Below are positions 2,209 through 22,384 of a stretch of 41,848 nucleotides of DNA, piece by piece. The DNA is from Candidatus Kuenenia stuttgartensis (GTDB taxonomy: Bacteria > Planctomycetota > Planctomycetia > Planctomycetales > Planctomycetaceae). The DNA lies in assembly GCA_945861865.1 (NCBI GenBank), contig CAMAWN010000029.1, positions 1-41,848 on the forward strand, in the 5' to 3' direction. The notes under the pieces are model-generated. The model was given only the letters and a program-made list of their open reading frames with translations, made no database searches and was not told the DNA's origin. The stretch's first letter is position 1. Every line of letters starts with the position of its first letter. The position numbers were made by a program, and so were the translations under genes.

Positions 2209-4995
2209 ATGGACCAAGCACGTTCCGACTCCGCGATCGCGTCGCAGCCGCCCACCACGGCTTATCGCCCCGCGCGCGTCGGGCACGGAACAGAGACCGT
2301 GATTAATCCTGAGCGTCGTGGAGCTTCATTGCCGTTACCCGAAGGGCCAGGTTTACCCAACTCGTCGGTGTGGGTGCGATTGTTTCCGTCGGAGGTTGGT
2401 TATCAAGACCCGGCGCTGATCCCCGCACCAGCCGGATTGCAGTTGGGGCACTTTCAGATCGAAGCTCGCATCGGTGCGGGAGGCATGGGGGCTGTGTTCC
2501 ATGCGATGGACACGCGATTGCAGCGAGGCGTTGCGCTGAAGATTCTCTCGCCCAGCCTGTCGCGTGACGAAACGGCGGTGCAGCGATTTCAGAATGAAGC
2601 TCGCGCGGCGGCGCGGCTCGATCACGAGAACATCGCTCGAGTGTATTTCATCGGCGAAGAGCAAGGTCTGCATTTCATCGCCTTCGAGTTCATCACCGGC
2701 ACCAATCTTCGCGAATTGATTCGCGAACGAGTCCGTATCGCCCCCAACGAAGCGGTCAACTTCGTGCTGCAAATTGCGGCGGCGTTGCGGCACACATCGG
2801 CGAATGGCGTCGTGCATCGCGACATCAAGCCGTCGAACATCATCATCACGCCTTCTGGCCGAGCGAAGTTGGTCGATCTGGGATTGGCTCGCAAAGAGAG
2901 CACTGAATCCGCGCCGGACCTGACGATGGCCGGCACGACGCTCGGCACGTTCGATTACATCTCTCCTGAACAAGCGAAAGACCCGCGTAACGTCGATGTC
3001 CGCAGCGATATCTATTCCCTGGGTTGCACGCTGTATCACATGCTCACCGGCGAACCGCCGTATCCCGACGGGACCGTACTCAAAAAGTTGCTCGACCATC
3101 AAAGTGGTGAGCCGCCTGATCCGGCGAAAAAGAATCGCCGGGTCTCGGACGACTTGTCTCTGGTCTGTCGCAAGATGATGGCCAGCGACCCCAAGCGGCG
3201 CTATCAAACGCCCGACCAATTGATTCACGATTTGATGCTGATCGCCGGCTCGCTGGGCCTGCGCGGCATCAGCCAGGAAGGCTTGATCTGGCTGAAATCG
3301 ACTCGCTCCATGTCCGACTTCTGGCGGCAAAACGTCGGCGTCATTGCGATGGTCGCGTTGCTGATCGTGATCGTGGTTGGTGTCGAACGATTTCCTTATC
3401 TCCGTGGCGACTGGAGCAACGGCACTCAAGCCGCGTCGCCATCTGGGGCGGTCGCGTCCAACTCAAATGCCGTGGATCGTCAAGCTGTGGGGACAGGCCG
3501 GAGAGATTCATTCCCGCAGACAGAACTTTCGACGAATGATCTTCAACCCGGTTCGGCGAAATCGAGCAGGCGTTTGAGCGATGATGATTCCGTGTTGGTC
3601 TCGAAAGACTCAACGGAGTCGGTGACAGCGATTGGTGAACCGTCTCGCTTCCCAATGCCTTTGTTGCCGGACTTTGAGAATCCGTTGGAGAGTTCCCCAT
3701 TTCCGCCGCCGACCTCGGTCGTTCGTCCATCGGATTCGGTGTTGTTCGGACCCAACAACAAAGCAGCTCCCGCTGTCAGTTCGAACGAAAAGCCGACGGG
3801 ACGTGAACCATCAGCGGTTGCTCGTGCGACCAACGGTAGATCCGACACCGAGGGATCGCGCATCAGCGATGCAACCACGGACAAACCCGCGGCGGCGGAG
3901 GAAACGAATGGCGTCTTCACCCTGGCTTCGGACGGATCGTCCGCAAAACGATTCCCGACACTGGAAGCGGCTTGTGCGGCGGTGAGCGACGGCAGTGTCA
4001 TCGAACTGCGGTACAACGGTCGCCGTTCCGAGAAGCCGCTGCGGATCAGCAAAAAGAACATCACGATTCGAGCCGCACGCGGCTTTCGTCCGACGGTCGA
4101 GTTCGCTCTCGGCAGCGTCGCTGCGGATGCGCACTTGCGGTTGATCGGCGTCAGCAGCGGTCCTGTCCAGATCAACAACGTGGCCTTTGAGATTTTCGTT
4201 CCGTCGTTTTTCGCAGCGGATCGAATCAGTCTGTTCGCGATTGATCGTGCGGAGAAGCTGCGGCTGCAAGATGTCGCCATCACATTGAGCAACCCCGGAC
4301 AACGACCGACCGCGTTGTTCGATATCTCGACAGAAGCGGGGCAGATGCTGGCCGACATGAAGATGAGCACGACCGGCGTGGCTCGCGATCCGTTGGAGAT
4401 TGAATTGACCGAGTGCTTCGTGCGCGGGCACTGTGATTTGATTCGTGTCCGCAATGCCAAACCTGGCCATCTGACGCTGCGAGATACGGCAATCGCTGTG
4501 GACGGCTCGCTGCTCCGAGTGGAAGGGCATTCCGAAAAGCCTGCCGAGCAAACCCGATTGGATCTGCGGCTCGAACATGTGACCGCCATTGTCGGTCAAA
4601 GCCTCATCCGCCTCGAAAGCGGCGACCTGCCACGCGAGTTGCCTCCCGTCGCGGTTGAAGCCCGCAACAACATTTTGATGACGACCAACAGCGGTCCGCT
4701 GGTGGCAATGAGCGGCAATACCAGCGAGGCTGACTTCCGTAAGATTTTCGTCTGGTCGGGTGGAAAGAATTTCTACGACGGCTTCGACGATTGGAAGACG
4801 GTTGGCGATGTCGGAGCGTCCAATGACAAACTCTTCTGGCTCGCGGATCGCGGCGACGTGGCCACGATGTCGCTCGACGCGCTGACGCTCGATCGCAAAT
4901 CCCCGTCCCCCAATCCGGGCATTAACGCCGCGACCGACGGCAACAACGCCGGTGCTGACATTTCCAAACTGCCGCAACCGGCGGATGAGGAATAG
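2209..4995 (+). CDS. Membrane-anchored Ser/Thr protein kinase with beta-helix-like extracytoplasmic region
   Basis: A 928-residue PknB/Stk-type kinase. The catalytic domain spans about residues 81-350: glycine loop IGAGGMGAVFHA (88-99), ATP lysine Lys111, HRDIKPSN (catalytic Asp205), DLG in place of DFG (Asp223), ISPEQ, and the DVRSDIYSLG helix F motif. A single transmembrane helix (about 376-392) separates it from a long exterior part. Residues 400-575 are Ser/Pro/Thr-rich linker. Residues about 576-900 (ending near base 4900) look like right-handed parallel beta-helix repeats of the pectate-lyase-like type, with a start resembling 'tleaAcaavsdGsvIel'. No PASTA or WD repeats are seen. The substrate and ligand are unknown. 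The gene stands alone on this strand; the following gene is convergent and the gap holds paired hairpin elements. All catalytic residues are present, so it should be active. Confidence 0.93.
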   Translation: MDQARSDSAIASQPPTTAYRPARVGHGTETVINPERRGASLPLPEGPGLPNSSVWVRLFPSEVGYQDPALIPAPAGLQLGHFQIEARIGAGGMGAVFHAMDTRLQRGVALKILSPSLSRDETAVQRFQNEARAAARLDHENIARVYFIGEEQGLHFIAFEFITGTNLRELIRERVRIAPNEAVNFVLQIAAALRHTSANGVVHRDIKPSNIIITPSGRAKLVDLGLARKESTESAPDLTMAGTTLGTFDYISPEQAKDPRNVDVRSDIYSLGCTLYHMLTGEPPYPDGTVLKKLLDHQSGEPPDPAKKNRRVSDDLSLVCRKMMASDPKRRYQTPDQLIHDLMLIAGSLGLRGISQEGLIWLKSTRSMSDFWRQNVGVIAMVALLIVIVVGVERFPYLRGDWSNGTQAASPSGAVASNSNAVDRQAVGTGRRDSFPQTELSTNDLQPGSAKSSRRLSDDDSVLVSKDSTESVTAIGEPSRFPMPLLPDFENPLESSPFPPPTSVVRPSDSVLFGPNNKAAPAVSSNEKPTGREPSAVARATNGRSDTEGSRISDATTDKPAAAEETNGVFTLASDGSSAKRFPTLEAACAAVSDGSVIELRYNGRRSEKPLRISKKNITIRAARGFRPTVEFALGSVAADAHLRLIGVSSGPVQINNVAFEIFVPSFFAADRISLFAIDRAEKLRLQDVAITLSNPGQRPTALFDISTEAGQMLADMKMSTTGVARDPLEIELTECFVRGHCDLIRVRNAKPGHLTLRDTAIAVDGSLLRVEGHSEKPAEQTRLDLRLEHVTAIVGQSLIRLESGDLPRELPPVAVEARNNILMTTNSGPLVAMSGNTSEADFRKIFVWSGGKNFYDGFDDWKTVGDVGASNDKLFWLADRGDVATMSLDALTLDRKSPSPNPGINAATDGNNAGADISKLPQPADEE

Positions 4996-5123
4996 GTCGG
5001 CGAGTTGGTCGTTCACTCCGGGTGCGGGTGCATGACACCATTGCCCGAAAACTGTAGCCCGGGCCCTCGTGGCCTGGTCGATTCAAACCAATTACGAAAT
5101 CATCCGACCCACAAGGGGTCGGG
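4996..5123. other. Convergent intergenic gap with an inverted pair of GTAG-footed hairpins
   Basis: The gap between kinase 1 and the convergent PSCyt gene holds no gene. Its second half is almost entirely occupied by two head-to-head hairpin elements (5054-5077 and 5104-5127, listed separately), the second overlapping the stop codon of the PSCyt gene. They may double as a bidirectional transcription end, but there is no U-tract. Confidence 0.6.
5054..5077 (+). repeat. REP-like hairpin, GTAG family A, copy 1
   Basis: GTAG foot at 5054-5057, then stem CCGGGCC/GGCCTGG with loop CTCGT. Six Watson-Crick pairs and one G-T wobble. It forms an inverted pair with copy 2. Confidence 0.7.
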
Positions 5124-5127
5124 CTAC
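5104..5127 (-). repeat. REP-like hairpin, GTAG family A, copy 2
   Basis: Read on the minus strand: GTAG at 5127-5124, stem CCGACCC/GGGTCGG (7 perfect pairs), loop CTTGT, followed by ATGATTT as in copy 3. The TAG of the foot is the stop codon of the PSCyt gene (5126-5124). Confidence 0.75.
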
Positions 5128-8100
5128 GTCTTGGAGATCGCCTCATCCAAGTTGAGCAGCAAGCTCATGACGGTCGTCCACGCAGCGAGTTCTTCCGGCG
5201 CGATCTGCATCCCTGATGTCGCACGGCCGACACTCAACAACTTCTCAGCGGCGGCGCGATCCGTCCGAAATCGGTCGCTCGCCGCGTGCAGCGTTTCCGA
5301 GAGAATGCGACGTTCCTCGGCGGTTGGCAGGCGGCTCAGAGCCAACTGAACCGCGAGGGCGATCCGTTCGTCGTCTGTCTTCGCCTCGGTCAGCACTCGC
5401 TCAGCCAAGTTCCGAGCGGCTTCGACAAACGTCGGATCATTGAGCAACACCAGCGCTTGCAGCGGTGTGTTGGTGCGTGCTCGGCGAATGAGACAGAACT
5501 CACGGTCGGGAGCGTCGAAGGTCATCATGCCAGGAGGCGGGCAGGTCCGTTTCCAAAACGTGTACATGCCACGGCGATACACGCCGTCGCCGGCATCGGC
5601 GACGTATTTGTCGCGGCGCTCGACCGACACGTCTTCCCACAGCCCGTCCGGCTGGTACGGCTTGACGCTCGGCCCGCCGAGCCGTTCGCGCAACAGGCCG
5701 CTGACGGCCAACGCATTGTCGCGGACAGTCTCCGCCGGCAAACGATACCGCGGCCCGCGAGCGAGCAGCCGATTGCGAGGATCACGCTGCAGCAGTTCGG
5801 GAGTGATGCGAGACGACTGCCGATATGCCGCGCTCGTGACGATCAATTTCAGAATCGCACGCTGGTCCCAGCCGGTGCGAATCAGTTCCGTTGCGAGCCA
5901 ATCGAGCAATTCGGGATGACTCGGCAGCGTGCCTTGCACGCCGAAGTCTTCGGCGGTCTCAACCAAGCCGGTGCCAAAGAGCATCTCCCACCAACGGTTC
6001 ACGGCCACGCGAGCCGTCAGCGGATGCGATGGACTGGTCAACCAACGAGCCAGGCTCACCCGATCGGGAGGAGCCTCTTGCGGCAAACTCGAAAACACAG
6101 ACGGCACACCCGCCGTGACTTCGTCGCCGCGCTGGTCGTACTGGCCACGACGCAGCAGGAACATCGAGCGGCGCGGCGTTTGTTCCTGCATGACCATCGT
6201 GACCGGGATGGCCTTGTCGAGTTCCGCAAGTTGACGCGGCAAGTCGGCAATCTGAGCTCGCATGTTCCGCGACTCGATGTCGATGCGGTCGAGATAGAAC
6301 TGCCGCAGTAGCACCGTTTGCGATTCGGTGCGATCTTTGGAAGTGATTGCGAGGATGTCCTTCAGTCGGCCGAGCGATTGACCGGCAGCTAGCGCCGCGG
6401 CTTCGTCGGCGGTCAGGGGCACGGAGTAGAGCTGTACGTCGTCGATGCGGCCTTGAAACGGAGCAGTCGCATTCCGCTGGCCGATGTGAAACGGCTTGTC
6501 CGTTTTCAGCGTTCCATCGAGGCTGTTGTTGGTCGTCGCGTCGAACTCACGCGGCTTGCCGTCGACGAAAATCTTCACGCCTGTCGCCCGGCGCGATCCG
6601 TCGTAGGTCACGGCCACATGATGCCATTCGTTGAGCGGCAGCGGTTCCTTCGTGACGACTTTGAAGGCCTTGTCCGGCCAGTGATGCACGAAGTGGCTGG
6701 ACACTTTGGCCCCTTCCAGAATGACATCGTAGCCGCGAAAGGCGTTGGCCTCGTCGATCTTTGACAGCACTGTTGTCGGTGAAGCCGAAGTCGGCCAGAC
6801 CCAGGCGGTCAGCGAGAATTTCTCGTCGCTGTCGAACGCTCCGACTTCGCCGCCGAGCACAAATGTCTTGCCATCGAACTCCAGCGCGCCCCCGAATTTT
6901 CCGGGGACGCGAGAAACTTTGCCGCGAATTGTTCCGCGCCGATCCGCGTTGACGAGGTTGCTCACTTGGTCGCCGTCGGCCTCATCGAGCGGGAAGTGAG
7001 CGACCAGTCCCGCCGGTCCCGCTTTGGCGATTTCGTCGGGAGTGAGCGACTTCTCCCAACGTGCGATCTCTGGGGCGATGTTGGCTTCTCGCTGTTTGAG
7101 CAACGCTTCGATTTCCGCCTTGCGGCGCTGCAAGCGATCCAACTCCGCCTGCTGTTGTCGCGACGGGACTTTGAGCAGCGGTTCGGCCATGCGGCCTTGG
7201 TTGTAGCCGACGATGCGATCCGGCACGTTGTTGAAGAACGCGGCGAACTGGTAGTACTCGCGCTGTGTCAGCGGATCGAACTTGTGGTCGTGGCACCGAG
7301 CACATTGGAACGACAGGCCCATGACAACCGTCGCTGTCGTGTGGACGCGGTCAGCGACGTACTCGACGTGATATTCCTCTTCGATGATGCCGCCCTCGGT
7401 CGTCAGCACATGGTTGCGATTGAACCCAGTGGCGACTCGTTGAGCCAGCGTCGCGTTTGGCAGCAAGTCGCCCGCGAGTTGTTCGCTGAGGAATTGGTCA
7501 TACGGCATCCCGCTCGCGAACGCTTCGATGACCCAATCGCGCCACGGCCACATCGACCGAGTTTCATCGTTGTTGTACCCGTTCGTGTCGGCATATCGAG
7601 CCGCATCCAGCCAGTGCATCGCCATCCGCTCGGCATGACGCGGCGAGACGAGCAAGCGGTCGACGACTTTCTCAAACGCATCGGGCGAGTCATCCGCCAA
7701 GAACACTCGCAAGTCGGTCAGCGATGGCGGCAAGCCCGTCAGATCCAACGTGATTCTGCGGAGCAGCGTTTCTTTCGGAGCCTCCAGCGACGGCGCGAGT
7801 CCTTCGGCTTCCAGTCGTGCATGCACGAAGACATCAATTGGAGTTCTGATTTGAAATTTGCGATTTGAAATTTGAGATTTCGTTCTCGGCACCGCTGGCC
7901 GTTGCGGCGGTACGAACGCCCAATGCTGCGAGAACTCGGCCCCCTGTTCGATCCAACGGCGCAGCGTCTCCTTTTGAGCGGGTGTCAGCGGTTTTTTGGC
8001 ATCCGGCGGCGGCATCAGTTGATCGTCGTCGCGAGCGTTGATCCGCGAGAGGAGTTCGCTGGTGTTCGGATTTCCGGGCGTCACGGCAATCTTGCCGGAT

Positions 8101-8330
8101 TCCGTTTTCGCGATCGCGGAGTCTCGTCGATCGAGCCGCAGCTTCGCCTGCCGAGTCGCCTCGTCCGGTCCGTGACAACTCCAGCAGTGATTCGACAGGA
8201 TCGGCCGCACGTCGCGAGCGAAGTCGATGCGTGTGTTCGCGGCCGGAGTCTCCGCTCGTGCAGCGGGAGCGATCAACGACACAATGCTGGTGCAGACAGC
8301 GAGGACGCAACGCGAAAATGACGTCGGCAT
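5124..8330 (-). CDS. Secreted PSCyt1-DUF1549-LamG-DUF1553 planctomycete cytochrome-type protein
   Basis: A 1068-residue exported protein with the domain order typical of Planctomycetes. A signal peptide covers about 1-26. A PSCyt1 heme c motif CWSCH lies at 49-53. A DUF1549 (PSCyt2) region runs about 160-370 and contains a second CxxCH (CARCH, 343-347). A LamG/concanavalin-like domain lies at about 460-650 and a DUF1553 (PSD1) region at about 745-1000 with the characteristic RTNTPLQALVLLNDPTF. The reaction is not known; extracellular redox or carbohydrate-linked roles have been suggested for such proteins. It starts 9 bases after the stop of the upstream gene, as the last member of a sigma/anti-sigma operon. 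A 14-bp simple repeat (7848-7880) has been accommodated in frame as residues 152-162 (SQISNRKFQIR) in the loop between PSCyt1 and DUF1549. Confidence 0.92.
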   Translation of the reverse strand: MPTSFSRCVLAVCTSIVSLIAPAARAETPAANTRIDFARDVRPILSNHCWSCHGPDEATRQAKLRLDRRDSAIAKTESGKIAVTPGNPNTSELLSRINARDDDQLMPPPDAKKPLTPAQKETLRRWIEQGAEFSQHWAFVPPQRPAVPRTKSQISNRKFQIRTPIDVFVHARLEAEGLAPSLEAPKETLLRRITLDLTGLPPSLTDLRVFLADDSPDAFEKVVDRLLVSPRHAERMAMHWLDAARYADTNGYNNDETRSMWPWRDWVIEAFASGMPYDQFLSEQLAGDLLPNATLAQRVATGFNRNHVLTTEGGIIEEEYHVEYVADRVHTTATVVMGLSFQCARCHDHKFDPLTQREYYQFAAFFNNVPDRIVGYNQGRMAEPLLKVPSRQQQAELDRLQRRKAEIEALLKQREANIAPEIARWEKSLTPDEIAKAGPAGLVAHFPLDEADGDQVSNLVNADRRGTIRGKVSRVPGKFGGALEFDGKTFVLGGEVGAFDSDEKFSLTAWVWPTSASPTTVLSKIDEANAFRGYDVILEGAKVSSHFVHHWPDKAFKVVTKEPLPLNEWHHVAVTYDGSRRATGVKIFVDGKPREFDATTNNSLDGTLKTDKPFHIGQRNATAPFQGRIDDVQLYSVPLTADEAAALAAGQSLGRLKDILAITSKDRTESQTVLLRQFYLDRIDIESRNMRAQIADLPRQLAELDKAIPVTMVMQEQTPRRSMFLLRRGQYDQRGDEVTAGVPSVFSSLPQEAPPDRVSLARWLTSPSHPLTARVAVNRWWEMLFGTGLVETAEDFGVQGTLPSHPELLDWLATELIRTGWDQRAILKLIVTSAAYRQSSRITPELLQRDPRNRLLARGPRYRLPAETVRDNALAVSGLLRERLGGPSVKPYQPDGLWEDVSVERRDKYVADAGDGVYRRGMYTFWKRTCPPPGMMTFDAPDREFCLIRRARTNTPLQALVLLNDPTFVEAARNLAERVLTEAKTDDERIALAVQLALSRLPTAEERRILSETLHAASDRFRTDRAAAEKLLSVGRATSGMQIAPEELAAWTTVMSLLLNLDEAISKT
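7848..7880. repeat. In-gene GATTTGAAATTTG tandem repeat
   Basis: Two copies of GATTTGAAATTTG (7848-7860 and 7862-7874) plus a partial third (7875-7880), 14-bp period, AT-rich inside a GC-rich gene. A related sequence stands upstream of the Gfo/Idh gene at 28181-28217. Confidence 0.8.
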
Positions 8331-8339
8331 GGTGGTCGA

Positions 8340-9575
8340 TCAATCTTTGGGATTGGGGCGATTCGGTGGCAGAAACTCTGGCTCACGCGGTCGGCGCGAG
8401 CCATCCAGTGGTGGGAAACGGCCCTTCTTGTCGCGACGATCATCGACGTCGGGCGGTCCCTGGCCGGGTCGCGGACCATTGTTCAATTGCTTCACGAAAC
8501 GCTCCATCTCTGGAGTGCCTAGAATTTGCTGCAACTCGGCAATGCCCGGAACCTGTTCTTTGACGTAAAGCTGCAAGAGTTCGAGTTGACGATCTTCGCG
8601 ATTCAAGTTGTCGAGCCGAGTGCGTTCGGTCTCATCGAGCTTTTTCTGGAAGGCGATGAGGACATCGGGGCGGGGACGGTGGTCTTCGAGCGCCCGCTGC
8701 GTCTCCGTCATTAAGCCACGCATCAAGACCATGATCAGCAGCGTGCTGCGAGCGTCGAATTGATTCGGATTGGGATTCCGATTCACCGGCACCTGCTTGA
8801 GCGGTCCATCCGGTAGCGCGGCGAACACCTTGTCGATGGTGCTGCTGCCCGATCCAAAAATGCGAACGCTCGGCGGACCGAGCGGATGTTGCTCAAGGGT
8901 CAATCGCAGGACACGAACCTTATGGGAATACTCATCGAGCTTGTTGAGTTCAGCGTGCGTCTCGGACGGCAACTCGTGCTCCAGAACGCGGATGATCGTT
9001 TCCATCTCCGGCACGCATGATCCGAAGCGGTCTCCGAACGGCAGCGACATGCCTCCGAACAGTTTCTCGATCATTCGCAGGCGACCGCTGTTGTTCTGGC
9101 CAAACGGCGGCCCGTTGGGCGGCCGATCCGAGGGGAGGAATGGTTCGGGCATGTCACGAGGCGGCGGCCGGCGATGGAGTTTCTCGATCAACCGCCTTCG
9201 CGCTTCGGGATCGCGAGTCTGTCGCAGTTCGTGTCGGTCCACTGGAGACAGCGAATTCGCCCAAGACCGGTAGTCGTCGAACGCGGCCTTGAGTTCCGGG
9301 TCGTTCTCGATGACTTGATGCAGTTCACGCAGGCGGTCCCGCTCGGCGGCAGGCATCTCGCGGTACAGCCGAACGTTTTCATCGAGCCGCCGGCGTTCCG
9401 TCTCGGTCATCTCGTTGATTCGCTTTTGATTCGCCTCACGCTGCTCCGACGGACGGCCATCGGCGGCCAGAAACCACGGCAGCAGCGACAGACTCAGCGT
9501 GACCGCCACGACAGCCACACGCGATCCCACGCCAGCCAAGGCTGGATTATCGCGGTTCTGGAGGACGACGTTCAT
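8340..9575 (-). CDS. Exported Arg/Glu-rich helical protein of a sigma/anti-sigma operon, function unknown
   Basis: Of 411 residues, the first about 38 contain a hydrophobic segment (VAVVAVTLSLSLLPWFLAA) that looks like a signal peptide or N-terminal anchor. The rest is highly charged and helical, with repeated 'R..L.....R..L..l' spacing (about 45-130) resembling DUF3106-like or Spy/CnrX-like periplasmic helical proteins. A Pro-rich tail lies at about 365-411. I chose ATG 9575 because AGGAG lies 6 bases upstream; an upstream start at 9650 would lack this. The gene overlaps the end of the anti-sigma gene by 29 bases, implying translational coupling, and is followed after 9 bases by the PSCyt gene. 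A role as periplasmic sensor or modulator of the sigma system is only an inference from context. Confidence 0.8.
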   Translation of the reverse strand: MNVVLQNRDNPALAGVGSRVAVVAVTLSLSLLPWFLAADGRPSEQREANQKRINEMTETERRRLDENVRLYREMPAAERDRLRELHQVIENDPELKAAFDDYRSWANSLSPVDRHELRQTRDPEARRRLIEKLHRRPPPRDMPEPFLPSDRPPNGPPFGQNNSGRLRMIEKLFGGMSLPFGDRFGSCVPEMETIIRVLEHELPSETHAELNKLDEYSHKVRVLRLTLEQHPLGPPSVRIFGSGSSTIDKVFAALPDGPLKQVPVNRNPNPNQFDARSTLLIMVLMRGLMTETQRALEDHRPRPDVLIAFQKKLDETERTRLDNLNREDRQLELLQLYVKEQVPGIAELQQILGTPEMERFVKQLNNGPRPGQGPPDVDDRRDKKGRFPPLDGSRRPREPEFLPPNRPNPKD

Positions 9576-10083
9576 CGAGCACTCCTCGCTGCTTGAGGCC
9601 ACGCAGAAATTCCGCATCGCCGATCTCATGATAAACGTCGATGTGCTCAATCAAAGTCAGGTCGTCCAGCCACACGTCACTGTTGGGCCGAGCGGTCATG
9701 CGGCCGACGGCGAACCCCAACGCGCTGACCAAAACCAGTCCCGCCGACCAAGCCACCAACGGTGGAACAGGGAATCGACGCCGAGATGAGGTTTCAAAAG
9801 CGACAGTCGCCGCCGTCTCCGGCTCCGCCGCTAACTCCGTGGTGCCGTCGACGACCTGCAAAGTTGCGAGCGTCCGGCTGCTGAATTCTCCGGAAGCATT
9901 TGGACGCGGCAGCAGGTCGAGCAACTCCCAGGCGCGATTGAGCTGTTCGACTTCGGCCCGCATCGCCGAATCACTCGACAACGCTTGTTCGACTTCGCGC
10001 GCGTCTCCCTCCGGTAGCTCGCCGTCGAGGTACGCGACCAGCTTCTCGGTGAAAGTCGGTGATTGAGAATTTTCGTCGGACAT
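9547..10083 (-). CDS. Membrane anti-sigma factor, zinc-motif-less
   Basis: A 178-residue single-pass protein. The N-terminal cytoplasmic part (about 10-60) has the 'EKLVAYLDGELPEGDAREVE' pattern common to anti-sigma domains, but without the HxxxCxxC zinc motif of ZAS proteins. One transmembrane helix lies at about 108-128, and a short exterior tail of about 50 residues follows. It presumably binds and holds the sigma factor encoded 12 bases upstream until a signal arrives. The small exterior part suggests that sensing may rely on a partner, for which the next gene (overlapping by 29 bases) is the obvious candidate. The call rests on the N-terminal pattern, topology and position after a sigma gene. 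Confidence 0.85.
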   Translation of the reverse strand: MSDENSQSPTFTEKLVAYLDGELPEGDAREVEQALSSDSAMRAEVEQLNRAWELLDLLPRPNASGEFSSRTLATLQVVDGTTELAAEPETAATVAFETSSRRRFPVPPLVAWSAGLVLVSALGFAVGRMTARPNSDVWLDDLTLIEHIDVYHEIGDAEFLRGLKQRGVLDERRPPEPR

Positions 10084-10095
10084 GATTCCGTCGGC

Positions 10096-10740
10096 TTAAA
10101 AAAATGGCTCCAGATAGGCCCGTAGGTTCTCTCTCGCGCGCGACAGCAGCGATTTGACTGCTTGCGGTGTCAGGTCCATCGTGGCCGCGATGTCGATGTA
10201 GCTCATCTGCTCAAACTTGTGCAGCAACACCGCCATCTTCTGCCGGTCATTGAGCGATTCGAGCGCGGCTCGCACCAGCATTTGCGATTCGTTGCGGTCC
10301 AACACGCGAGCCGGCATCAATGCCGACTTCTCCGCCAACAATTGCTCCTGCGGCCGAGCACCCAGCAGCCCGGAATCGCTGCCGGCCAGCGGCGCTTCGC
10401 GACGCCGAGCACCGTCACGCCGCCAATTGCTTGCCAAGTTGTTGGCGATGTGAAACATCCACGTCGAAAACTTCGCCTTGGCCTCGTACTTCGTACGGTT
10501 GCGATAAATCCGCAGGAAGACTTCCTGGCCCAAGTCCTCCGCCGCGTCTTGATTGCCCAGCAAGTGGTACAGCACGGCCACCAGCCGATCCTGATAATTC
10601 TCGACCAACTGCGAAAACGCCGCGTCGTCCCCCCGTTTCGCGCGCAGCATCAGTTGCACGTCTGGGTCGTGCAGAAACTGCGAAAGTACGGGATCGGAGG
10701 TCACCACGTCCGGACTTTCCGTTGGAGTCACGTCGAACAT
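10096..10740 (-). CDS. ECF-type RNA polymerase sigma factor
   Basis: A 214-residue sigma-70 family factor with only regions 2 and 4. Region 2 (about 40-113) includes QDAAEDLGQEVFLRIYRN and the FSTWMFHIANNLASNWRR promoter-melting/-10 recognition helix. Region 4 (about 158-207) contains the helix-turn-helix YIDIAATMDLTPQAVKSLLSRAR. There is a 20-30 residue N-terminal extension. It heads a minus-strand operon: sigma, anti-sigma, exported helical protein, PSCyt protein. Such factors usually activate their own operon, so the target promoter should lie upstream of 10740, in the 209-base divergent gap shared with mqnD. I cannot identify its -35/-10 by eye. Confidence 0.95.
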   Translation of the reverse strand: MFDVTPTESPDVVTSDPVLSQFLHDPDVQLMLRAKRGDDAAFSQLVENYQDRLVAVLYHLLGNQDAAEDLGQEVFLRIYRNRTKYEAKAKFSTWMFHIANNLASNWRRDGARRREAPLAGSDSGLLGARPQEQLLAEKSALMPARVLDRNESQMLVRAALESLNDRQKMAVLLHKFEQMSYIDIAATMDLTPQAVKSLLSRARENLRAYLEPFF

Positions 10741-10949
10741 TCAACCCATGCGGGGCTCAGAAGTTTCTCACTCGGCTCAACAGCGGGCGGAGTATAACCG
10801 TCGCTGGAAACGACCGTCAGCCGACCGGCTTTCGTCCACCGCGACACCGCTGCCAGTTAACTCCGAGTGGTTGCGACCGGTTTCCTTGGGGCCTATTCTC
10901 CGATTCGTACTGCCTCAAACCATCAACCACTCACCATCGACTCCAACCC

Positions 10950-11786
<837 letters not shown>

Positions 11787-11837
11787 GCTGGTTTGCGCTG
11801 ACGGCTGATGACGGTTTTTGATCTGGAGAAATGAGTC

Positions 11838-12626
11838 ATGTCATCCTCAAACTATTTGCAGTCCCTGTTCGGCCTCGATGGATTGACCGCCGTCGTCATC
11901 GGCGGCACTGGCACACTCGGTGGAGCGTTTTGCGATGCACTCGCCGGGGCGGGATCGCATGTGCTGGTTGTCGGCCGCGATGAAGTCGATGGCAATGCTC
12001 GTGTCGCCAGCATTCAGAAAGCCGGCGGCAGTGCCGAGTTCTTTCGGGCGGACTCGACCAAGCGAGAAGACCTGGAGGCGATCGTCTCGCATCTCGACAA
12101 GCATGGCCGGAACTGCGACGTGCTGATCAACGGCGCGGGGACAAACTCGCCGACGCCATTCCTGGAAATCACCGACGAAGAATGGGACCGCATCTTCAAC
12201 ATCAATGTGCGGGCGCTGCGGCTGGCGTGCCAGGTCTTCGGCAAGTTTCTGCTCGACAAAGGACGCGGCGGTTCGATCATCAACATCGCGTCGCTCAGTT
12301 CGGTGATTCCGCTGTCGCGAGTCTTCACCTACTCGGCGACGAAGGCGGCGGTGCTCAATCTGACGCTCAATCTGGCTCGCGAGTGGGCCACGAAGGGCAT
12401 CCGCGTCAACGCTCTCTCGCCCGGTTTCTTCCCCGCCGAGCAGAACCGCAAAGTGCTCACGCCCGACCGCGTCGAGAACATCATGCGGCACACGCCGATG
12501 AATCGCTTCGGCAACCCTGAAGAATTGGCCGGAGCGATCCTACTGATGGCCTCGCCGAAAGCCGGCAGCTTTCTAACCGGCGAAAACATCGTCGTCGATG
12601 GCGGCTTTTTGGCGATGACGATCTGA
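11838..12626 (+). CDS. SDR-family NAD(P)-dependent oxidoreductase
   Basis: A 262-residue classical short-chain dehydrogenase. The Rossmann cofactor loop is GGTGTLGG (22-29). The NGAG motif lies at 98-101 in place of the usual NNAG. Catalytic residues are Ser152, Tyr165 and Lys169 (YSATK). The substrate cannot be read from the sequence. The type resembles sugar-acid dehydrogenases (gluconate, fructuronate/mannonate), which is only a suggestion. The ATG at 11838 is supported by TGGAG at 11824-11828. It follows mqnD by 51 bases and converges with the DUF817 gene with a 7-base gap, too short for independent terminators. Confidence 0.9.
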   Translation: MSSSNYLQSLFGLDGLTAVVIGGTGTLGGAFCDALAGAGSHVLVVGRDEVDGNARVASIQKAGGSAEFFRADSTKREDLEAIVSHLDKHGRNCDVLINGAGTNSPTPFLEITDEEWDRIFNINVRALRLACQVFGKFLLDKGRGGSIINIASLSSVIPLSRVFTYSATKAAVLNLTLNLAREWATKGIRVNALSPGFFPAEQNRKVLTPDRVENIMRHTPMNRFGNPEELAGAILLMASPKAGSFLTGENIVVDGGFLAMTI

Positions 12627-12633
12627 GATCGGT

Positions 12634-13440
12634 TCATTCGGTCGTTGGAACGTGACCCGCAGTCAGTGCCACACGGCGTTCGCGCCAGTGCTTCAGATCG
12701 GCGACAATCACGAAGCTGATGATGACCAGCAGGAACCACGAACTCATCTTCTGCACGGAGACTGCAGTCCATCGAGTGGTTTGCTCCGGATAAACCCACG
12801 CTCCGAAGAACGTGGCGATGTTCTCGGCCACCCAGATGAAGAAGCCGATCAGGAAGAACGACAACACCAGCGGCATCCGGCGGCGGGCTTTCCAAACGGT
12901 GAAATCGACCCGCGTCCGCCAGAAGAACACGAAGACCAGCGGGATCAACACGAGCCGTACGTCGCGCACGAAGGCGTTCGTGAAGAAGTTCACGTAGATC
13001 GCCACGCACAGCGGGACGCTCGCGCGGTACGACGGATAGTGTTTCAGCTCCAGATCCAAGATACGCCACGCCTGGCACATGTAGCTGGCCACCGCCGCGT
13101 ACATGAACCCGCTGTAAAGTGGTACGGTGCTCAGCTTCGTGTAACCGAATTCCGGATAGCTCCACGAGTGGATGGCCGGATGCGTCTTGAACAACTCCAG
13201 CATCAAGCCGATGAAGTGGAACAGCCCCAGCACGACCGCTTCCGACAGGGATTCGACGCGACTCGCCAGCAGCGCGGCTTGCAGCACGAGCGCCGCGAGC
13301 AGAATGAAGTCGTACCTCGGCAGCGAACCGAGCGGCAGCGTCTTCGAGAGAATCAGCACGCCGAAAAAACTGCCGGCAAAGATGCAGGCCCGCGCCTGCT
13401 TCAGTCCGAACAGCAGAAACTCATACGCCGCGTTCCGCAT
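12634..13440 (-). CDS. DUF817 family integral membrane protein
   Basis: A 268-residue polytopic protein with about seven or eight hydrophobic helices. The family-typical blocks are YDFILLAALVLQAALL, VPLYSGFMYAAVASYMCQAW, YVNFFTNAF, RMPLVLSFFLIGFFIWVAEN and SSWFLLVIISFVIVADLKHW. DUF817 proteins occur in many bacteria and their function is unknown. I placed the start at ATG 13440 because similarity begins with MRNAAYEFLLFGLKQA and the length matches the family; the frame is open well upstream into the next gene without similarity. No clear ribosome binding site is visible. The gene is divergent from the SDR at 13609, with a hairpin pair between them. Confidence 0.9.
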   Translation of the reverse strand: MRNAAYEFLLFGLKQARACIFAGSFFGVLILSKTLPLGSLPRYDFILLAALVLQAALLASRVESLSEAVVLGLFHFIGLMLELFKTHPAIHSWSYPEFGYTKLSTVPLYSGFMYAAVASYMCQAWRILDLELKHYPSYRASVPLCVAIYVNFFTNAFVRDVRLVLIPLVFVFFWRTRVDFTVWKARRRMPLVLSFFLIGFFIWVAENIATFFGAWVYPEQTTRWTAVSVQKMSSWFLLVIISFVIVADLKHWRERRVALTAGHVPTTE

Positions 13441-13461
13441 GGCGGCGAAGTGTAATCGGAG

Positions 13462-13530
13462 GATGGGCACTCCTGCCCGTCTTCTTTTTCTTTCCCTTGG
13501 CACCGAGACGGGCAAGAGTGCCCGTCCTAC
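13462..13530. repeat. Inverted pair of REP-like hairpins (family D)
   Basis: Minus-strand copy 13530-13507: GTAG foot, stem GACGGGC/GCCCGTC, loop ACTCTT. Plus-strand copy 13462-13481: stem GATGGGC/GCCCGTC, loop ACTCCT, foot degenerate. The two arms pair over about 21 bases with two mismatches. The pair lies between two divergent genes, so it is unlikely to be a simple terminator. Confidence 0.75.
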
Positions 13531-13608
13531 AAAAACAATCACGTCGTTCCTAGCATGTCGCCCGCTACTGGCTGCGAACGTTCCACTGACTCCATTGAGG
13601 ACACATTC

Positions 13609-14382
13609 ATGCTTCCTGGCATCAAGCAGTTTGATTTGACGGGCAAGACCGCGATCGTCACTGGCGGCTCCAAAGGATTGGGGCAGGCGATGGCCGAAGG
13701 GTTGGCCTCCGCCGGCGCGAACTTGCTGCTCACCAGCCGCAACATCGACGAGGCTCAGGCCGTCGCCGATCAGCTTCGGCGTGAGTACGGCTGCAAGACG
13801 GTCGCAATCGCGGCGGATGCCTCGTCCGAGGAATCCGCGAAAGCGATGGTCGATCGGGCGCTTGCCGAGTTCGGGCAGATCGACATCCTCGTCAACAACG
13901 CAGGCATCAACATTCGCGGGCCGATCGAAGAGTTGACGCTCGAGCAATTCAAAAAGGTCAACAGCATCAACACCGACGGCGTGTGGCTCTGCACGCGAGC
14001 GGTTGTGCCGCACATGAAGTCGCGGAAGTACGGCAAGATCGTGAACATCGCCAGCACGATTGGACTGGTCGGTTTGGCGCTGCGTTCGCCCTACGCCGCC
14101 AGCAAAGGGGCCGTCGTGCAGATGACGAAGACGCTCGGCTTGGAGCTTGCCGCATGGAACATCACGGTCAACGCAATCTGCCCAGGCCCGTTCCTGACAC
14201 CGATGAATGTCCCGATCGCCGAGACCGAAGACGCGAAGAAAAACGTCGTTGGTGCTGTCGCCTTCAACCGCTGGGGCCGCATGGAAGAAATCCAAGGTGC
14301 CGCGATCTTCCTGGCCAGCGACGCCTCCAGCTACATGACCGGCAGCTTGGTCACCGTCGATGGCGGTTGGACAGCGCGGTAA
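13609..14382 (+). CDS. SDR-family oxidoreductase, gluconate 5-dehydrogenase-like
   Basis: A 257-residue short-chain dehydrogenase, a better match to the textbook pattern than the one at 11838: cofactor motif TGGSKGLG (18-25), NNAG (96-99), catalytic Ser149, Tyr162 and Lys166 (YAASK), and the C-terminal GSLVTVDGGW. The PG-P-F-T-P stretch after the active site (CPGPFLTPMN) is typical of this superfamily. The subgroup looks like gluconate 5-dehydrogenase or KduD-type sugar-acid enzymes, but the substrate is not determinable here. ATG 13609 is preferred over the ATG at 13555 because GAGG at 13597-13600 lies 8 bases upstream and family similarity starts at residue 1. One GTAG hairpin lies between it and the next gene. 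Confidence 0.92.
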   Translation: MLPGIKQFDLTGKTAIVTGGSKGLGQAMAEGLASAGANLLLTSRNIDEAQAVADQLRREYGCKTVAIAADASSEESAKAMVDRALAEFGQIDILVNNAGINIRGPIEELTLEQFKKVNSINTDGVWLCTRAVVPHMKSRKYGKIVNIASTIGLVGLALRSPYAASKGAVVQMTKTLGLELAAWNITVNAICPGPFLTPMNVPIAETEDAKKNVVGAVAFNRWGRMEEIQGAAIFLASDASSYMTGSLVTVDGGWTAR

Positions 14383-14386
14383 CGCG

Positions 14387-14410
14387 GTAGCCCAGGCCCT
14401 TGTGGCCTGG
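14387..14410 (+). repeat. REP-like hairpin, GTAG family A, copy 3
   Basis: GTAG foot at 14387-14390, stem CCAGGCC/GGCCTGG (7 perfect pairs), loop CTTGT, followed by ATGATTT. Compared with copy 2 at 5104-5127, three base pairs differ and all three are compensated. It is a singleton, 4 bases after the SDR stop codon. Confidence 0.75.
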
Positions 14411-14456
14411 ATGATTTACTGACGCCTGGAAAATCGACCGACGGCAGGGACACTTG

Positions 14457-15332
14457 ATGGCAGCACGTCTCACGATCTTGGCCAGTGGCAGCGCTGGGAA
14501 TTCGGCGCTGGTCGAGTGCGACGGAGAACGCTGGCTGATCGACCTCGGATTGGAGCCGAAGGAACTCGATGCGCGGCTGGCGAAGGTCGATGCCGATTGG
14601 TCGCAGATTCGTGGCGTGCTGGTGACGCATCGGCACAGCGACCATTGGACTCCGAAGTCGCTGAGCCGCTGTTGGACATCGCGTGTGCCGGTGTTCTGTC
14701 ATCGCGATCACGCGGCGGCGTTCCGCATCGGTTGCCCGGACTTCGCTGACCTCGAACGGGGCCGATTGTTCCGGCCGTTCGTCGGTGAGCGGTCGATCAC
14801 GATCTCGGCGAACTGGCAGTGCCGTCCGTTTCGAGTCCGCCACGACGGCGGCGCGACGTTTGGATTTCGCTTCGAGTCGCCTCAATCGGCATTCGCCTAC
14901 GCCGCCGACTTGGGCTGCTGGGATCGTGGCCTCTTGGAGCGATTGATCGACGTTGAACTGCTGGCGCTGGAGTTCAATCACGACCCCGACTCGCTGAGAC
15001 AAAGCCGTCGGCCACCGTGGCTCGTCAACCGCATTCTCGGTGATGAAGGACATCTCTCGAACGCGCAAGCCTGCGAGTTGGTTGGCGAAGTGCTCAAGCA
15101 ATCGAGCGTGGATCGGCTGCGGCAACTCGTCCTGCTGCACATCAGTCGCGAGTGCAACTCGGCAGACCTCGCAGCAGCGACTGCTCGCACCGCCCTGGCT
15201 CAGTTCGGTTCGGAGGCGAACGTCTTTGCCGCCGAGCAGCAAGAGCCGAGTCCGTGGTTCGTCATCGGTGAATCATTTGCGGTTGATCGCGTGATTCAGC
15301 CGGTGTCGTTAGTTCAAGCGACATTATTCTGA
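14457..15332 (+). CDS. MBL-fold metallo-hydrolase, WalJ/YycJ-like
   Basis: A 291-residue metallo-beta-lactamase-fold protein. It starts LTILASGSAGNSALVE, the usual beginning of the WalJ/YycJ group, and has the zinc motif HRHSDH (His58, His60, Asp62, His63). A later Asp in YAADLG and His in EFNHDPD could complete the dinuclear metal site. WalJ-type proteins have been linked to cell-wall and DNA-repair coordination in Firmicutes; nuclease or phosphodiesterase activity is likely for the fold. The start is ATG 14457 (a TTG codon immediately precedes it); CAGGGA at about 14445 may act as ribosome binding site. The C-terminal about 90 residues are longer than the core fold needs and unassigned. Confidence 0.85.
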   Translation: MAARLTILASGSAGNSALVECDGERWLIDLGLEPKELDARLAKVDADWSQIRGVLVTHRHSDHWTPKSLSRCWTSRVPVFCHRDHAAAFRIGCPDFADLERGRLFRPFVGERSITISANWQCRPFRVRHDGGATFGFRFESPQSAFAYAADLGCWDRGLLERLIDVELLALEFNHDPDSLRQSRRPPWLVNRILGDEGHLSNAQACELVGEVLKQSSVDRLRQLVLLHISRECNSADLAAATARTALAQFGSEANVFAAEQQEPSPWFVIGESFAVDRVIQPVSLVQATLF

Positions 15333-15410
15333 ACGTCTGGCCGGCCGCCGAAAGCCGACAACTCTCGGCCGGACATTGAAACGCCGCGTGAAATTCGACA
15401 GCCTCCCGTC

Positions 15411-16799
15411 ATGACACGTCCGCTCGTCATTATCAATGTGGTTGGTCTCACGCACGAAATGCTCGGCCCGAACACACCGAACATCTCGCGAGTCGCGGCG
15501 GACGGGTTTTCTCGGCCGATGGGGACGATCCTGCCGGCCGTGACTTGTTCGGCGCAAGCGACGTTGCTGACTGGAATGCTACCGCGCGAGCATGGCATCG
15601 TCGCGAACGGCTGGTACTGGCGAGACCTCGCCGAAGTTCTGTTCTGGCGGCAGTCGAATCAACTCGTGCGCGGTGAGCGGTTGTACGACGCGGCGCGGAA
15701 GCGAGGTCCGAGCTACTCGGTCGCGAAGCTGTTTTGGTGGTTCAACATGTACGCCGACGTGAACTGGTCGGTGACTCCTCGGCCGAGCTATCCCGCCGAT
15801 GGCCGCAAGGTCATGGACTCCTACAGCCAACCGGCCGACCTGAAGGACCGGCTGCAAGAACGGCTGGGAGTGTTTCCGCTGTTCAAGTTTTGGGGACCGG
15901 CGGCGGACATCACGAGTACTCGCTGGATCGCCGACGCGACGGTCGCCGTCATGCAGGACCACAATCCGTCGCTGACTTTCGCCTACCTGCCGCACTTGGA
16001 CTACAACCTGCAACGGATCGGCCCGAACGATCCGAGCATCGCCGAAGACGTTCGCGCGGTCGATGCCGAAGCTGGAAAAGTCATCAACGCAGCGCGCGCA
16101 CGCGGGGCCGACGTCGTCGTCTTGTCCGAGTACGCGATCACATCGGTCAGCCGGCCGGTTCACATCAATCGCGTGTTGCGAGAACATGGCTACCTCGTCG
16201 CGCGACGCGAGAAGCTTGGTTGGGAAACTCTCGATGCCGGCGCGTCGCGAGCCTTCGCGGTCGCCGATCATCAGGTCGCTCACATCTACGTCCGTCGCCC
16301 TGAAGACCTCGCTCCGGTCGCCGAGTTGTTGCGAAAGATGCCGGGGATCGAACGTGTCCTCGATCGTGCCGCTCAAGCCGAGTTCGGTATCGACCACGAA
16401 CGCTCCGGTGAACTGGTCGTCATCGCCGCGCCGGAGTCGTGGTTTACCTATTACTTCTGGCTCGATGACGCACTGGCTCCCGATTACGCGCGGACAGTCG
16501 ATATTCATCGCAAGCCCGGTTACGACCCGGTCGAATTGTTTCTCGATCCGGACTTGAAGTGGCCGAAGCTGCGAATTGCCACACGGCTGACGCAGAAACT
16601 GCTCGGCTTTCGGTACTACATGGACGTCATCGGCCTCGACGCCGCGATCGTTCGCGGCAGTCACGGCCGGCTGCCGACACTGGGATTCGAATCGCGAGAG
16701 GCTCCCGTTTTCATCTGCTCGTCGAAGCTGATCGAGTCAGATCGGTTGGCGATGGAGGACGTGAAAGCGGCGCTGTTGAAGTTGCAGTTCGGCGAGTGA
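15411..16799 (+). CDS. Alkaline-phosphatase-superfamily protein, EboF-like type I phosphodiesterase
   Basis: A 462-residue protein of the nucleotide pyrophosphatase/phosphodiesterase fold. PAVTCSAQATLLTG (42-55) aligns with the nucleophile block, Thr45 being the nucleophile position, and HGIVANGWY follows as in NPPs. Other expected metal ligands look altered: the Asp of 'DG' in the first strand is Val11, and the SDHG-type block reads SEYAI. PHLDYNLQRIGPND and a late GSHG are present. From memory, the same substitutions occur in proteins encoded in ebo clusters of cyanobacteria and other bacteria, so this is probably an EboF-like subfamily rather than a decayed gene. No other ebo gene is nearby. 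No signal peptide is seen, so it is probably cytoplasmic. Substrate unknown. Confidence 0.85.
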   Translation: MTRPLVIINVVGLTHEMLGPNTPNISRVAADGFSRPMGTILPAVTCSAQATLLTGMLPREHGIVANGWYWRDLAEVLFWRQSNQLVRGERLYDAARKRGPSYSVAKLFWWFNMYADVNWSVTPRPSYPADGRKVMDSYSQPADLKDRLQERLGVFPLFKFWGPAADITSTRWIADATVAVMQDHNPSLTFAYLPHLDYNLQRIGPNDPSIAEDVRAVDAEAGKVINAARARGADVVVLSEYAITSVSRPVHINRVLREHGYLVARREKLGWETLDAGASRAFAVADHQVAHIYVRRPEDLAPVAELLRKMPGIERVLDRAAQAEFGIDHERSGELVVIAAPESWFTYYFWLDDALAPDYARTVDIHRKPGYDPVELFLDPDLKWPKLRIATRLTQKLLGFRYYMDVIGLDAAIVRGSHGRLPTLGFESREAPVFICSSKLIESDRLAMEDVKAALLKLQFGE

Positions 16800-16856
16800 G
16801 TGGGGCAGGTTTTCAACCGGCCCGGCCAGGACAGGCAGGTTGAAAACCTGCCCCAC
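16800..16856. repeat. Inverted pair of GTGG-footed hairpins (family B), possible terminator
   Basis: GTGGGGCAGGTTTTCAACC at 16800-16818 and its exact reverse complement at 16838-16856 form a perfect 19-bp stem with a 19-base loop. Each arm also folds alone (GGCAGGTT/AACCTGCC in the second). It begins at the base after the stop codon of the phosphodiesterase gene, so it may end that transcript. A diverged pair lies at 17811-17902. Confidence 0.85.
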
Positions 16857-16936
16857 GCGAGACGCCTTCGCTGAGTCCTGAGAGCTGGCTACACTGGCCA
16901 CAATCGTGGCTGAAGGTCGTTGGAACGGAGTCATTC

Positions 16937-17806: not shown

Positions 17807-17810
17807 TCTC

Positions 17811-17902
17811 GTGGGGCAGTTTTCAACCTGCCCGTGAAGTGACAACAATCACTTGAATCACGCGGTAACACTGAAGGATGCGCAGGTTGAAACCTGCCTC
17901 AC
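17811..17902. repeat. Diverged inverted pair of GTGG-type hairpins (family B)
   Basis: The plus arm 17811-17833 starts GTGGGGCAG and ends CAACCTGCCC. The minus arm 17902-17882 starts GTGAGGCAGG and ends CAACCTGC. Same family as 16800-16856 with a 2-base deletion and substitutions. The second arm touches the ribosome binding site of the following exbD gene. Confidence 0.7.
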
Positions 17903-17912
17903 GAGGTTCGTC

Positions 17913-18335
17913 ATGAGAATTCCGACTCGCCAACGAAAACTTGGATTGAGCTTCGACATCACGCCGCTGATCGACATCGTGTTTCAGCTCGTCATCTTTT
18001 TTTTGGCGGCGACGTACATCGTTCGCAGCGACGCAAACGAGAAGATCACGTTGCCGAAAGCCACGATGGCCCGAGATCAGCCGCCCACATCGCCGCGACG
18101 CTTCGTCATCACGATCACCGCCGAGCGAGTCTGGCTGCTCGGCAACCAGCGCACCGAGCGAGCGGCCATCGAACAACAATTCCTCGCAGCGGCTCGCACA
18201 TCGGAGCAAGCGGCGGAAATTGAGATCCGTTTGCGAGCCGACGCCCGCGTGCCGTACAGCGAGATCGAGCCGTTGATGCTGACCTGCGCGAAACTCGGCA
18301 TCCGCAAGCTCGGCTTCGCCGTCATCCACGAATGA
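17913..18335 (+). CDS. ExbD/TolR-type biopolymer transport protein (first copy)
   Basis: A 140-residue bitopic protein with a short cytoplasmic N-terminus, one transmembrane helix (about 17-38) carrying the conserved Asp21 in ITPLIDIVFQLVIFF, and a periplasmic domain with the ExbD-like 'lrAD..vpyseie.lm..c' element. Asp21 corresponds to the proton-carrying Asp of ExbD/TolR. ATG 17913 is chosen over the upstream ATG at 17853 because the MRIP start matches the paralogue next door, ACGAGG at 17901-17906 gives a binding site, and the upstream 60 bases are repeat element. The next gene begins 7 bases after its stop. Confidence 0.92.
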   Translation: MRIPTRQRKLGLSFDITPLIDIVFQLVIFFLAATYIVRSDANEKITLPKATMARDQPPTSPRRFVITITAERVWLLGNQRTERAAIEQQFLAAARTSEQAAEIEIRLRADARVPYSEIEPLMLTCAKLGIRKLGFAVIHE

Positions 18336-18342
18336 GCGACAC

Positions 18343-18844: not shown

Positions 18845-18851
18845 AAATCAG

Positions 18852-22364: not shown

Positions 22365-22384
22365 ATCAATTGCGTCCATCCAAA

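What the first reader, a model, noticed from the sequence alone, without database searches (positions are those of the whole stretch)
5054..14410. Covarying GTAG hairpin family: stem changes compensated, loop and flanks fixed
Three 24-base elements (5054-5077 plus, 5127-5104 minus, 14387-14410 plus) share GTAG, a 7-bp stem and a 5-nt loop (CTCGT/CTTGT/CTTGT). Stems are CCGGGCC/GGCCTGG, CCGACCC/GGGTCGG and CCAGGCC/GGCCTGG. Between the second and third, three base pairs differ and all three are compensated, while the loop and the trailing ATGATTT are identical. This shows selection on (or copying of) a folded form. A GTAG foot next to a short hairpin is what RAYT (TnpA-REP) transposases recognise in enterobacterial REPs. 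That these are planctomycete REPs is inference.
Basis: partly seen in the sequence, partly recalled or inferred. Interest (0 to 1): 0.75.

Follow-up and report, generated by a model that had tools for sequence, protein, structure and literature searches.

The report
Genus-specific GTAG hairpin repeats (REPINs)
These short hairpins are copies of a small mobile DNA repeat of a well-known kind (REP/REPIN), found so far only in one bacterial genus, and the transposase gene that probably moves them was found, in a broken state, in a sister species.

Summary
The three hairpins are at the stated coordinates, and copies two and three differ by three fully compensated base pairs; the first stem has one G-T wobble. 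Two of the three are one element: 5054-5127 is a 74-bp inverted doublet with GTAG at both outer ends (a REPIN); 14387-14410 is the surviving half of an older doublet. The genome holds about 40 copies. Ten of 12 genus genomes carry the family; 0 of 47 genomes outside the genus gave a model match. A strict pattern has 319 matches in the genus, its reversed control 0. In one sister species a Y1 (RAYT/TnpA-REP) gene, interrupted by a stop, lies among five copies of this hairpin and keeps the HuH, tyrosine and GTAG-contact motifs. The 5054 doublet is absent from the same site in close relatives. Orthologous copies decay without compensation, so the covariation reflects copying of two stem subtypes, not selection on each copy. 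It is a new family of a known kind, GTAG REPs mobilised by RAYTs, already reported from planctomycetes. Noteworthy: the cognate transposase was not found in 9 of 10 carriers, and one gene junction holds different GTAG palindromes in different species.

The parts
5054..5127 (.). REPIN: 74-bp head-to-head doublet, GTAG at both outer ends
   Evidence: 73-75 bp is the length of 19 of 25 A-B doublets in the loci. Absent from the orthologous site in G003, G005, G006, G009 and no model match in the more distant orthologs.
5054..5077 (+). REP, subtype A: GTAGC CCGGGCC CTCGT GGCCTGG, one G-T wobble; CT stands directly 5' of GTAG
5078..5103 (.). 26-bp spacer of the doublet (TCGATT...AAATCAT)
5104..5127 (-). 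REP, subtype B: GTAGC CCGACCC CTTGT GGGTCGG, fully paired
5124..5126 (-). Stop codon TAG of the PSD1/PSCyt2-domain gene (5124-8330, -), supplied by the GTAG foot; nine of nine relatives compared have TGA at the same codon
14387..14410 (+). REP, subtype A: GTAGC CCAGGCC CTTGT GGCCTGG, 4 nt after the stop codon of an SDR gene (13555-14382, +)
14411..14442 (.). Remnant of the spacer and first 5 nt (CCGAC) of the lost right-hand subtype B REP; both halves are still seen in G003, G005, G006, G007, G011

Best explanation
The hairpins are the ends of REPINs: small non-autonomous mobile elements of the GTAG-REP kind, copied by a single-strand-specific HuH/Y1 transposase (RAYT, TnpA-REP). Most likely working: when the strand is single-stranded, each end folds into a 7-bp hairpin with a free GTAG foot; the RAYT binds foot and hairpin, cuts at a CT dinucleotide beside GTAG, and the doublet is copied to a new place, often just behind a gene, where the TAG of GTAG can serve as the stop codon. 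Afterwards copies drift, lose one half or are overwritten. Shown here: family, doublet anatomy, covariation, CT enrichment 5' of GTAG, a RAYT gene among the same hairpins in a sister species, its catalytic and GTAG-contact motifs, presence and absence at orthologous sites, decay of old copies. Inferred from the known systems: binding, cleavage, copying.
For: 38 model matches at E<=0.1 in the own genome; 10 of 12 genus genomes carry the family, 0 of 47 others (at most 119 candidates scored per genome). 319 exact pattern matches against 0 reversed. 54 of 69 clusters in 65 loci are head-to-head pairs and 15 single. G010: Y1 gene with three copies upstream and two downstream; its stop codon is the TAG of the next GTAG. 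HuH PDHLHL, YIVLNPV and WQPRSYDHVLR; the last two align with E. coli TnpA-REP 4er8 (WQPRFWEHAIR), E=1.3e-4. Pfam Y1_Tnp 23.6 bits, cut-off 23; NCBIfam REP_Tyr_transpos 1.2e-19, 70.7 bits, below its cut-off of 80, for the 111-aa piece. One match of this gene in G010 at E<=1e-10, so not a multicopy insertion sequence. RAYT relatives flanked by their own GTRG hairpins: G033 and a Gemmataceae, Saprospiraceae, Chloroflexi and Anaerolineae MAG. CT directly 5' of GTAG in 13 of 37 own and 21 of 45 relatives' distinct copies from loci picked without regard to the flank; CT is the cleavage dinucleotide reported for E. coli and Stenotrophomonas TnpA-REP (PMC8266576, passages). Site 5054 empty in four close relatives.
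Against: The only RAYT found with this hairpin is interrupted by an in-frame stop; no other Y1 place in the 12 genus genomes is flanked by it (1 of 112), the window's genome included. These are drafts rated 87-99% complete and some flanks are cut by contig ends, so absence is weak evidence. The event at 5054 is not a clean insertion: 120 nt stand in place of 19-26 nt, with about 48 nt of unrelated DNA left of the doublet and no target duplication seen. Ten of the 17 RAYT loci in named genomes showed no flanking GTRG hairpin in my scan. The intact G033 protein matches 4er8 only weakly, E=0.028. No movement was observed.
Confidence: 0.94

Rival explanations
1. Host-selected RNA elements: transcription terminators or 3'-end mRNA stabilisers kept at gene ends, with no role for a transposase.
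For: In 13 of 69 clusters the TAG of GTAG closes an ORF, 3 of them on both sides of a convergent junction (simple ORF picking). The 14387 doublet is kept, whole or in part, in six genus genomes counting the window's, and a doublet at another site in five.
Against: None of the three hairpins is among the 23 terminator-like sites found in 4800-19500; no Rfam match in the window. Orthologous copies lose feet, pairs or halves and gain no compensated pair. It does not explain hairpins around a RAYT gene.
Confidence: 0.04
2. Ends of a classical IS200/IS605 insertion sequence or MITEs derived from one, rather than REPs of a domesticated RAYT.
For: RAYT and IS200 transposases are related; the piece also hits the IS200-like transposase 2f4f, E=0.0036.
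Against: The gene has one match in G010, where the strict pattern finds 109 hairpins; its GTAG-contact motif and best PDB match are TnpA-REP; the RAYT NCBIfam model scores 70.7 bits, the IS200 one 14.1.
Confidence: 0.02

Closest known systems
GTAG-tagged REPs with HH dimers (Di Nocera et al. 2013, PMC3733652; abstract, part 1 of section 4, sections 14, 15, 16 and passages read; Figure 1 not held)
   Same: GTAG foot, short stem, inverted dimers with GTAG outside, heterodimers of stem subtypes, GTAG often supplying the TAG stop codon, singletons as remnants of dimers, several REP families in R. baltica. All are reported there.
   Different: Sequence family: GTAGC + CCAGGCC or CCGACCC stem + 5-nt CTTGT loop. 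Whether it is one of the R. baltica families could not be checked because Figure 1 is not held; of 392 genomes of the phylum, 10 besides the own gave a strict-pattern hit, one each.
REPINs and RAYTs of Pseudomonas (Bertels and Rainey 2011, PMC3116915; passages read)
   Same: Inverted doublet as the unit, singletons as decayed remnants.
   Different: Two length classes here, mostly 73-75 bp for A-B and 91 bp for B-B doublets; cognate RAYT not found in 9 of 10 carriers.
E. coli TnpA-REP, PDB 4er8, and its REP/BIME system (PMC6006769, PMC8266576; passages read)
   Same: Y1 nuclease with the WQ....[ED]H..R GTAG-contact motif; CT as cleavage dinucleotide; different REP subtypes in one doublet.
   Different: Perfect 7-bp stem without the bulge that the E. 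coli enzyme needs; one unpaired C between GTAG and stem.

Membership tests
GTAG REP / REPIN | GTAG (GTRG) foot within 0-2 nt of a short GC-rich hairpin | tested here: met
   Foot GTAG, one unpaired C, 7-bp stem; GTAG in 107 of 113 relatives' rows, some copies held twice
GTAG REP / REPIN | Many dispersed copies | tested here: met
   38 in own genome at E<=0.1; up to 109 exact pattern matches per genome
GTAG REP / REPIN | Inverted doublets, GTAG outside | tested here: met
   54 of 69 clusters, 15 single; the G010 REPtron, not in that count, has + - + before and + - behind the gene
GTAG REP / REPIN | Cognate RAYT gene flanked by the same hairpin | tested here: met
   One place in G010, interrupted by a stop; 1 of 112 Y1 places in 12 genomes. 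Not met in the window's own genome
GTAG REP / REPIN | Presence/absence differences between relatives at the same site | tested here: met
GTAG REP / REPIN | Binding, cutting and copying by the RAYT | not testable with these tools
   Only indirect: CT enrichment 5' of GTAG
RAYT / TnpA-REP (the G010 gene) | HuH motif, catalytic Tyr with NPV, GTAG-contact residues | tested here: met
   PDHLHL, YIVLNPV, WQPRSYDHVLR; residue roles from passages of PMC6006769
RAYT / TnpA-REP (the G010 gene) | NCBIfam NF047646 curated cut-off (80 bits) | tested here: inconclusive
   70.7 bits for the 111-aa piece behind the stop; the whole protein was not scored
Intrinsic terminator | T run directly after the stem | tested here: not met
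   None of the three hairpins is listed
IS200/IS605 insertion sequence | Transposase gene in several mobile copies with its ends | tested here: not met
   One match in G010

The most novel reading that the evidence does not exclude
A REPIN population persists across a genus after most species have lost its transposase, kept either by a host benefit of hairpins at gene ends or by mobilisation through another family's RAYT; and one gene junction (the SDR gene end at 14387) is a recurrent landing pad taken by at least four different GTAG palindrome families in different species.
Probability: 0.15. Interest if true: 0.5.

Novelty: new member of a known kind. Interest (0 to 1): 0.3.

Why it matters
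It gives one genus with a defined REP family, a candidate cognate RAYT, related genomes at about 70-94% identity around the sites compared, empty and filled sites, and several coexisting GTRG families. That is a usable natural data set for how REPINs are gained, decay and lose their transposase outside Proteobacteria. The kind of element and most of its traits are already published.

Tried and rejected
Loose patterns with 2-3 mismatches were useless: the reversed control gave more hits than the pattern; only the strict pattern and the model separate signal from chance. The three own Y1 genes (one below the Pfam cut-off) looked like candidates but carry other flanking repeats: L038 a 23-nt AAGAGCTGCGTCCCC-type inverted repeat, L039 GGGTGGCACGCCC, L040 CTCGTTTAACCCGGAGCC. 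The ORF-overlap column (38 of 69) was dropped: simple ORF picking in GC-rich DNA takes long spurious antisense frames, as at 14387. Two of the 15 single copies there (L012:142, L218:152) may be chance matches. In one search the HuH+Y filter recognised only 12 of 111 loci, so its count (4 of 4 with the W motif have two or more GTRG hairpins near; 1 of 8 without) is illustrative only. CT on one or both doublet ends is about what independence gives. The 53 of 109 count is partly biased, as part of the loci were picked by a model that sees the flank; I use. Own-genome Y1 genes were listed to E<=0.001 only; in the other 11 genomes to E<=0.1. A PADLOC scan of the RAYT piece and the G033 protein gave nothing of note.

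Literature: searches are all the searches made; their listings showed no paper on this sequence family, but Figure 1 of PMC3733652 is not held and could list it.

Full report
CHECK OF THE OBSERVATION. Each is GTAGC, a 7-nt arm, a 5-nt loop and the second arm; folded as single-stranded DNA each gives exactly that hairpin (-6.1, -8.0 and -8.1 kcal/mol). Copies two and three differ by three pairs, all compensated. The first copy has one G-T wobble and a different loop and trailer. The first two are the ends of one 74-bp unit, 5054-5127, with GTAG outermost on both strands.

THE FAMILY. The window is contig C29 of a 6.24-Mb draft (351 contigs, rated 90% complete). A covariance model from 25 own copies finds 45 matches at E<=10 in this genome (150 of 2749 first-look candidates scored), 38 of them at E<=0.1. 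The same model finds the family in 10 of 12 genus genomes, the own one included, and in 0 of 47 genomes outside the genus (stricter filters, at most 119 candidates scored per genome). The strict pattern counts are G000 24, G010 109, G005 100, G007 22, G006 20, G002 13, G009 12, G004 11, G003 7, G011 1, G001 0, G008 0: 319 in all, with 0 for the reversed pattern. In 392 genomes of the phylum, 10 besides the own have one hit each; the reversed control also gives scattered hits, of one or two, in such genomes. G005 and G007 have hits at identical coordinates, so these bins may be partly mixed and the G005 count partly G007's. That the organism is a planctomycete rests on the label of sister genome G010 and on PSD1/PSCyt domains in the window.

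ANATOMY. Among 69 clusters in 65 loci held, 54 are head-to-head pairs and 15 single; no tail-to-tail or tandem pair was seen there. In the loci picked by pattern alone, 25 of 35 doublets join subtype A (CCAGGCC) with subtype B (CCGACCC), and 19 of these 25 are 73-75 bp long; the three B-B doublets are 91 bp. Pairing: 96.3% of stem cells in 85 distinct relatives' rows, four of seven pairs with changes on both sides. The fully paired stems are few: CCGACCC and CCAGGCC dominate; CCGTGCC and CCAGACC/GGTCTGG are rare. So much of the covariation is the difference between two subtypes that are copied as such.

THE TRANSPOSASE. Three Y1-domain matches are in the own genome, each beside other repeats. 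In the 11 other genus genomes PF01797 gives 109 places at E<=0.1. I fetched the surroundings of all of them, as far as the contigs reach, and searched them with the model (112 sources, which include the three own loci and G033). One place, G010:C11 (locus L128), has the hairpin: copies at 1836+, 1889-, 1943+ before the gene and 2513+, 2565- behind it. The gene runs from about 1999 to 2520, with one in-frame stop after 61 codons. Its own stop codon is the TAG of the next GTAG. The piece behind the stop has PDHLHL (HuH), YIVLNPV and WQPRSYDHVLR. E. coli TnpA-REP (PDB 4er8) has WQPRFWEHAIR in the aligned place (E=1.3e-4). That W94, Q95, E100 (D in some subclasses), H101 and R104 make up the GTAG-contact region is from PMC6006769 (passages). 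G010 corresponds to contig CAMDEA010000011.1, a MAG labelled Planctomyces sp. SH-PL62 isolate MaH-09apr19-81. In 150 family genomes the piece has one other match at E<=1e-10, 39% identical, in G033; that intact gene sits between inverted GTAGGGGCCGGACTCCGTGCCGGCCC hairpins, and matches 4er8 only weakly (E=0.028). Of 17 loci in named genomes, one is G010 and one G033 (L266, whose hairpins the stricter scan missed); a Gemmataceae, a Saprospiraceae, a Chloroflexi and an Anaerolineae locus have their own GTRG hairpins around the gene; L274 has one hairpin; the other 10 (L270, L271, L273, L275-L281) showed none or, in L281, only distant ones.

CLEAVAGE MARK. CT stands directly 5' of GTAG in 13 of 37 own and 21 of 45 relatives' distinct copies taken from loci chosen without regard to the flank, against a naive 1 in 16. 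CT is the dinucleotide reported as cut by the E. coli and Stenotrophomonas enzymes (PMC8266576, passages). At 5054 the left flank is AAAACT|GTAG.

GAIN AND DECAY AT ORTHOLOGOUS SITES. Around 5054-5127 the flanking DNA aligns at 83-94% with G003, G005, G006 and G009, but the 120 nt from 5006 to 5125 are replaced by 19-26 nt. No model match lies in any of the 15 loci fetched for that site (some overlap; G011, G010, G004, G002 and G007, more distant, are among them), nor in 7 further loci of the 14387 site. The simplest reading is gain in the window's lineage. The neighbouring gene ends in the same residues in all nine relatives compared, with stop codon TGA in each; in the window the stop at that same codon is TAG, from the GTAG foot. 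At 14387 five relatives (G003, G005, G006, G007, G011) keep both halves of a doublet, degenerate in G003 and G011, and the window keeps only the left half. G010 and G002 have different GTAG palindromes there, G004 a third (GTAGGTTGGGATTCCATCCCGACC) followed by a long insertion, and G009 and G001 none; G008 was not resolved. A third site (G000:C58) has the doublet in own, G003, G005, G006 and G009; in G006 another palindrome sits inside it. Over the 14387 and C58 sites, compared stem by stem (19 stems), the stems differ only by single-arm changes or indels; I saw no compensated double change. That is what decay after copying predicts.

COMPARISON WITH WHAT IS KNOWN. GTAG REPs, their HH dimers, heterodimers, singletons as remnants, GTAG as stop codon, GTAG REPs in planctomycetes, and several families in R. 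baltica (a planctomycete; that expansion of the name is recalled) are described in PMC3733652 (abstract, section 4 part 1, sections 14-16). REPINs as the mobile unit are in PMC3116915 (passages); fewer REPINs in E. coli genomes without the RAYT in PMC8049555 (passages); one specific REP family per TnpA-REP in PMC6006769 (passages). The present case fits these in nearly every feature I could test; the exceptions are the missing RAYT in the own genome and the piece falling short of one curated cut-off. What is added is a sequence family for which I found no report, its census in 12 genomes, its probable RAYT, and filled, empty and swapped sites.

VERDICT. A real, well-supported REPIN family; new member of a known kind. 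The open points are why the cognate RAYT was not found in 9 of 10 carriers, G003 with 99% completeness among them, and why the 14387 junction has received several different palindromes.

Noticed in passing
window 18789-18844: A second GTAG palindrome, GTAGGTTGGGACTCCGTCCCGACC in perfect 24-bp inverted arms 8 nt apart: probably another REPIN family. G004 carries a close form at the ortholog of 14387, and the G033 RAYT is flanked by a hairpin with the same GGACTCCGT core.
   Followed up: partly
window 16800-16856: GTGG-footed palindrome GTGGGGCAGGTTTTCAACC... (z-score -7.1 as DNA), likely a third GTRG family.
   Followed up: no
window 22295-22370: Overlapping inverted runs of GGTCATT/CCAATGA (I6, I9, I10), nature unknown.
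   Followed up: no
L038, L039, L040 (own genome): Three Y1/RAYT-like genes, each flanked by its own repeat without a GTAG foot that I could see.
   Followed up: partly
L142, L144, L170, L172: Further RAYT genes in the genus among their own GTRG hairpins; in L170 and L172 the gene's stop codon is again the TAG of GTAG.
   Followed up: partly
L025, L026, L036 (own genome): Hairpins cut short after the loop and fused to CGAATGGCAC- or GGAATGGTAC-like sequence, as if a recurrent junction.
   Followed up: no
L285 (G006:C177): A doublet of this family interrupted in its spacer by another palindromic element of about 100 nt.
   Followed up: no
G005:C341 and G007:C112: Hits at identical coordinates and identity in two assemblies: probably cross-binned contigs.
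   Followed up: no
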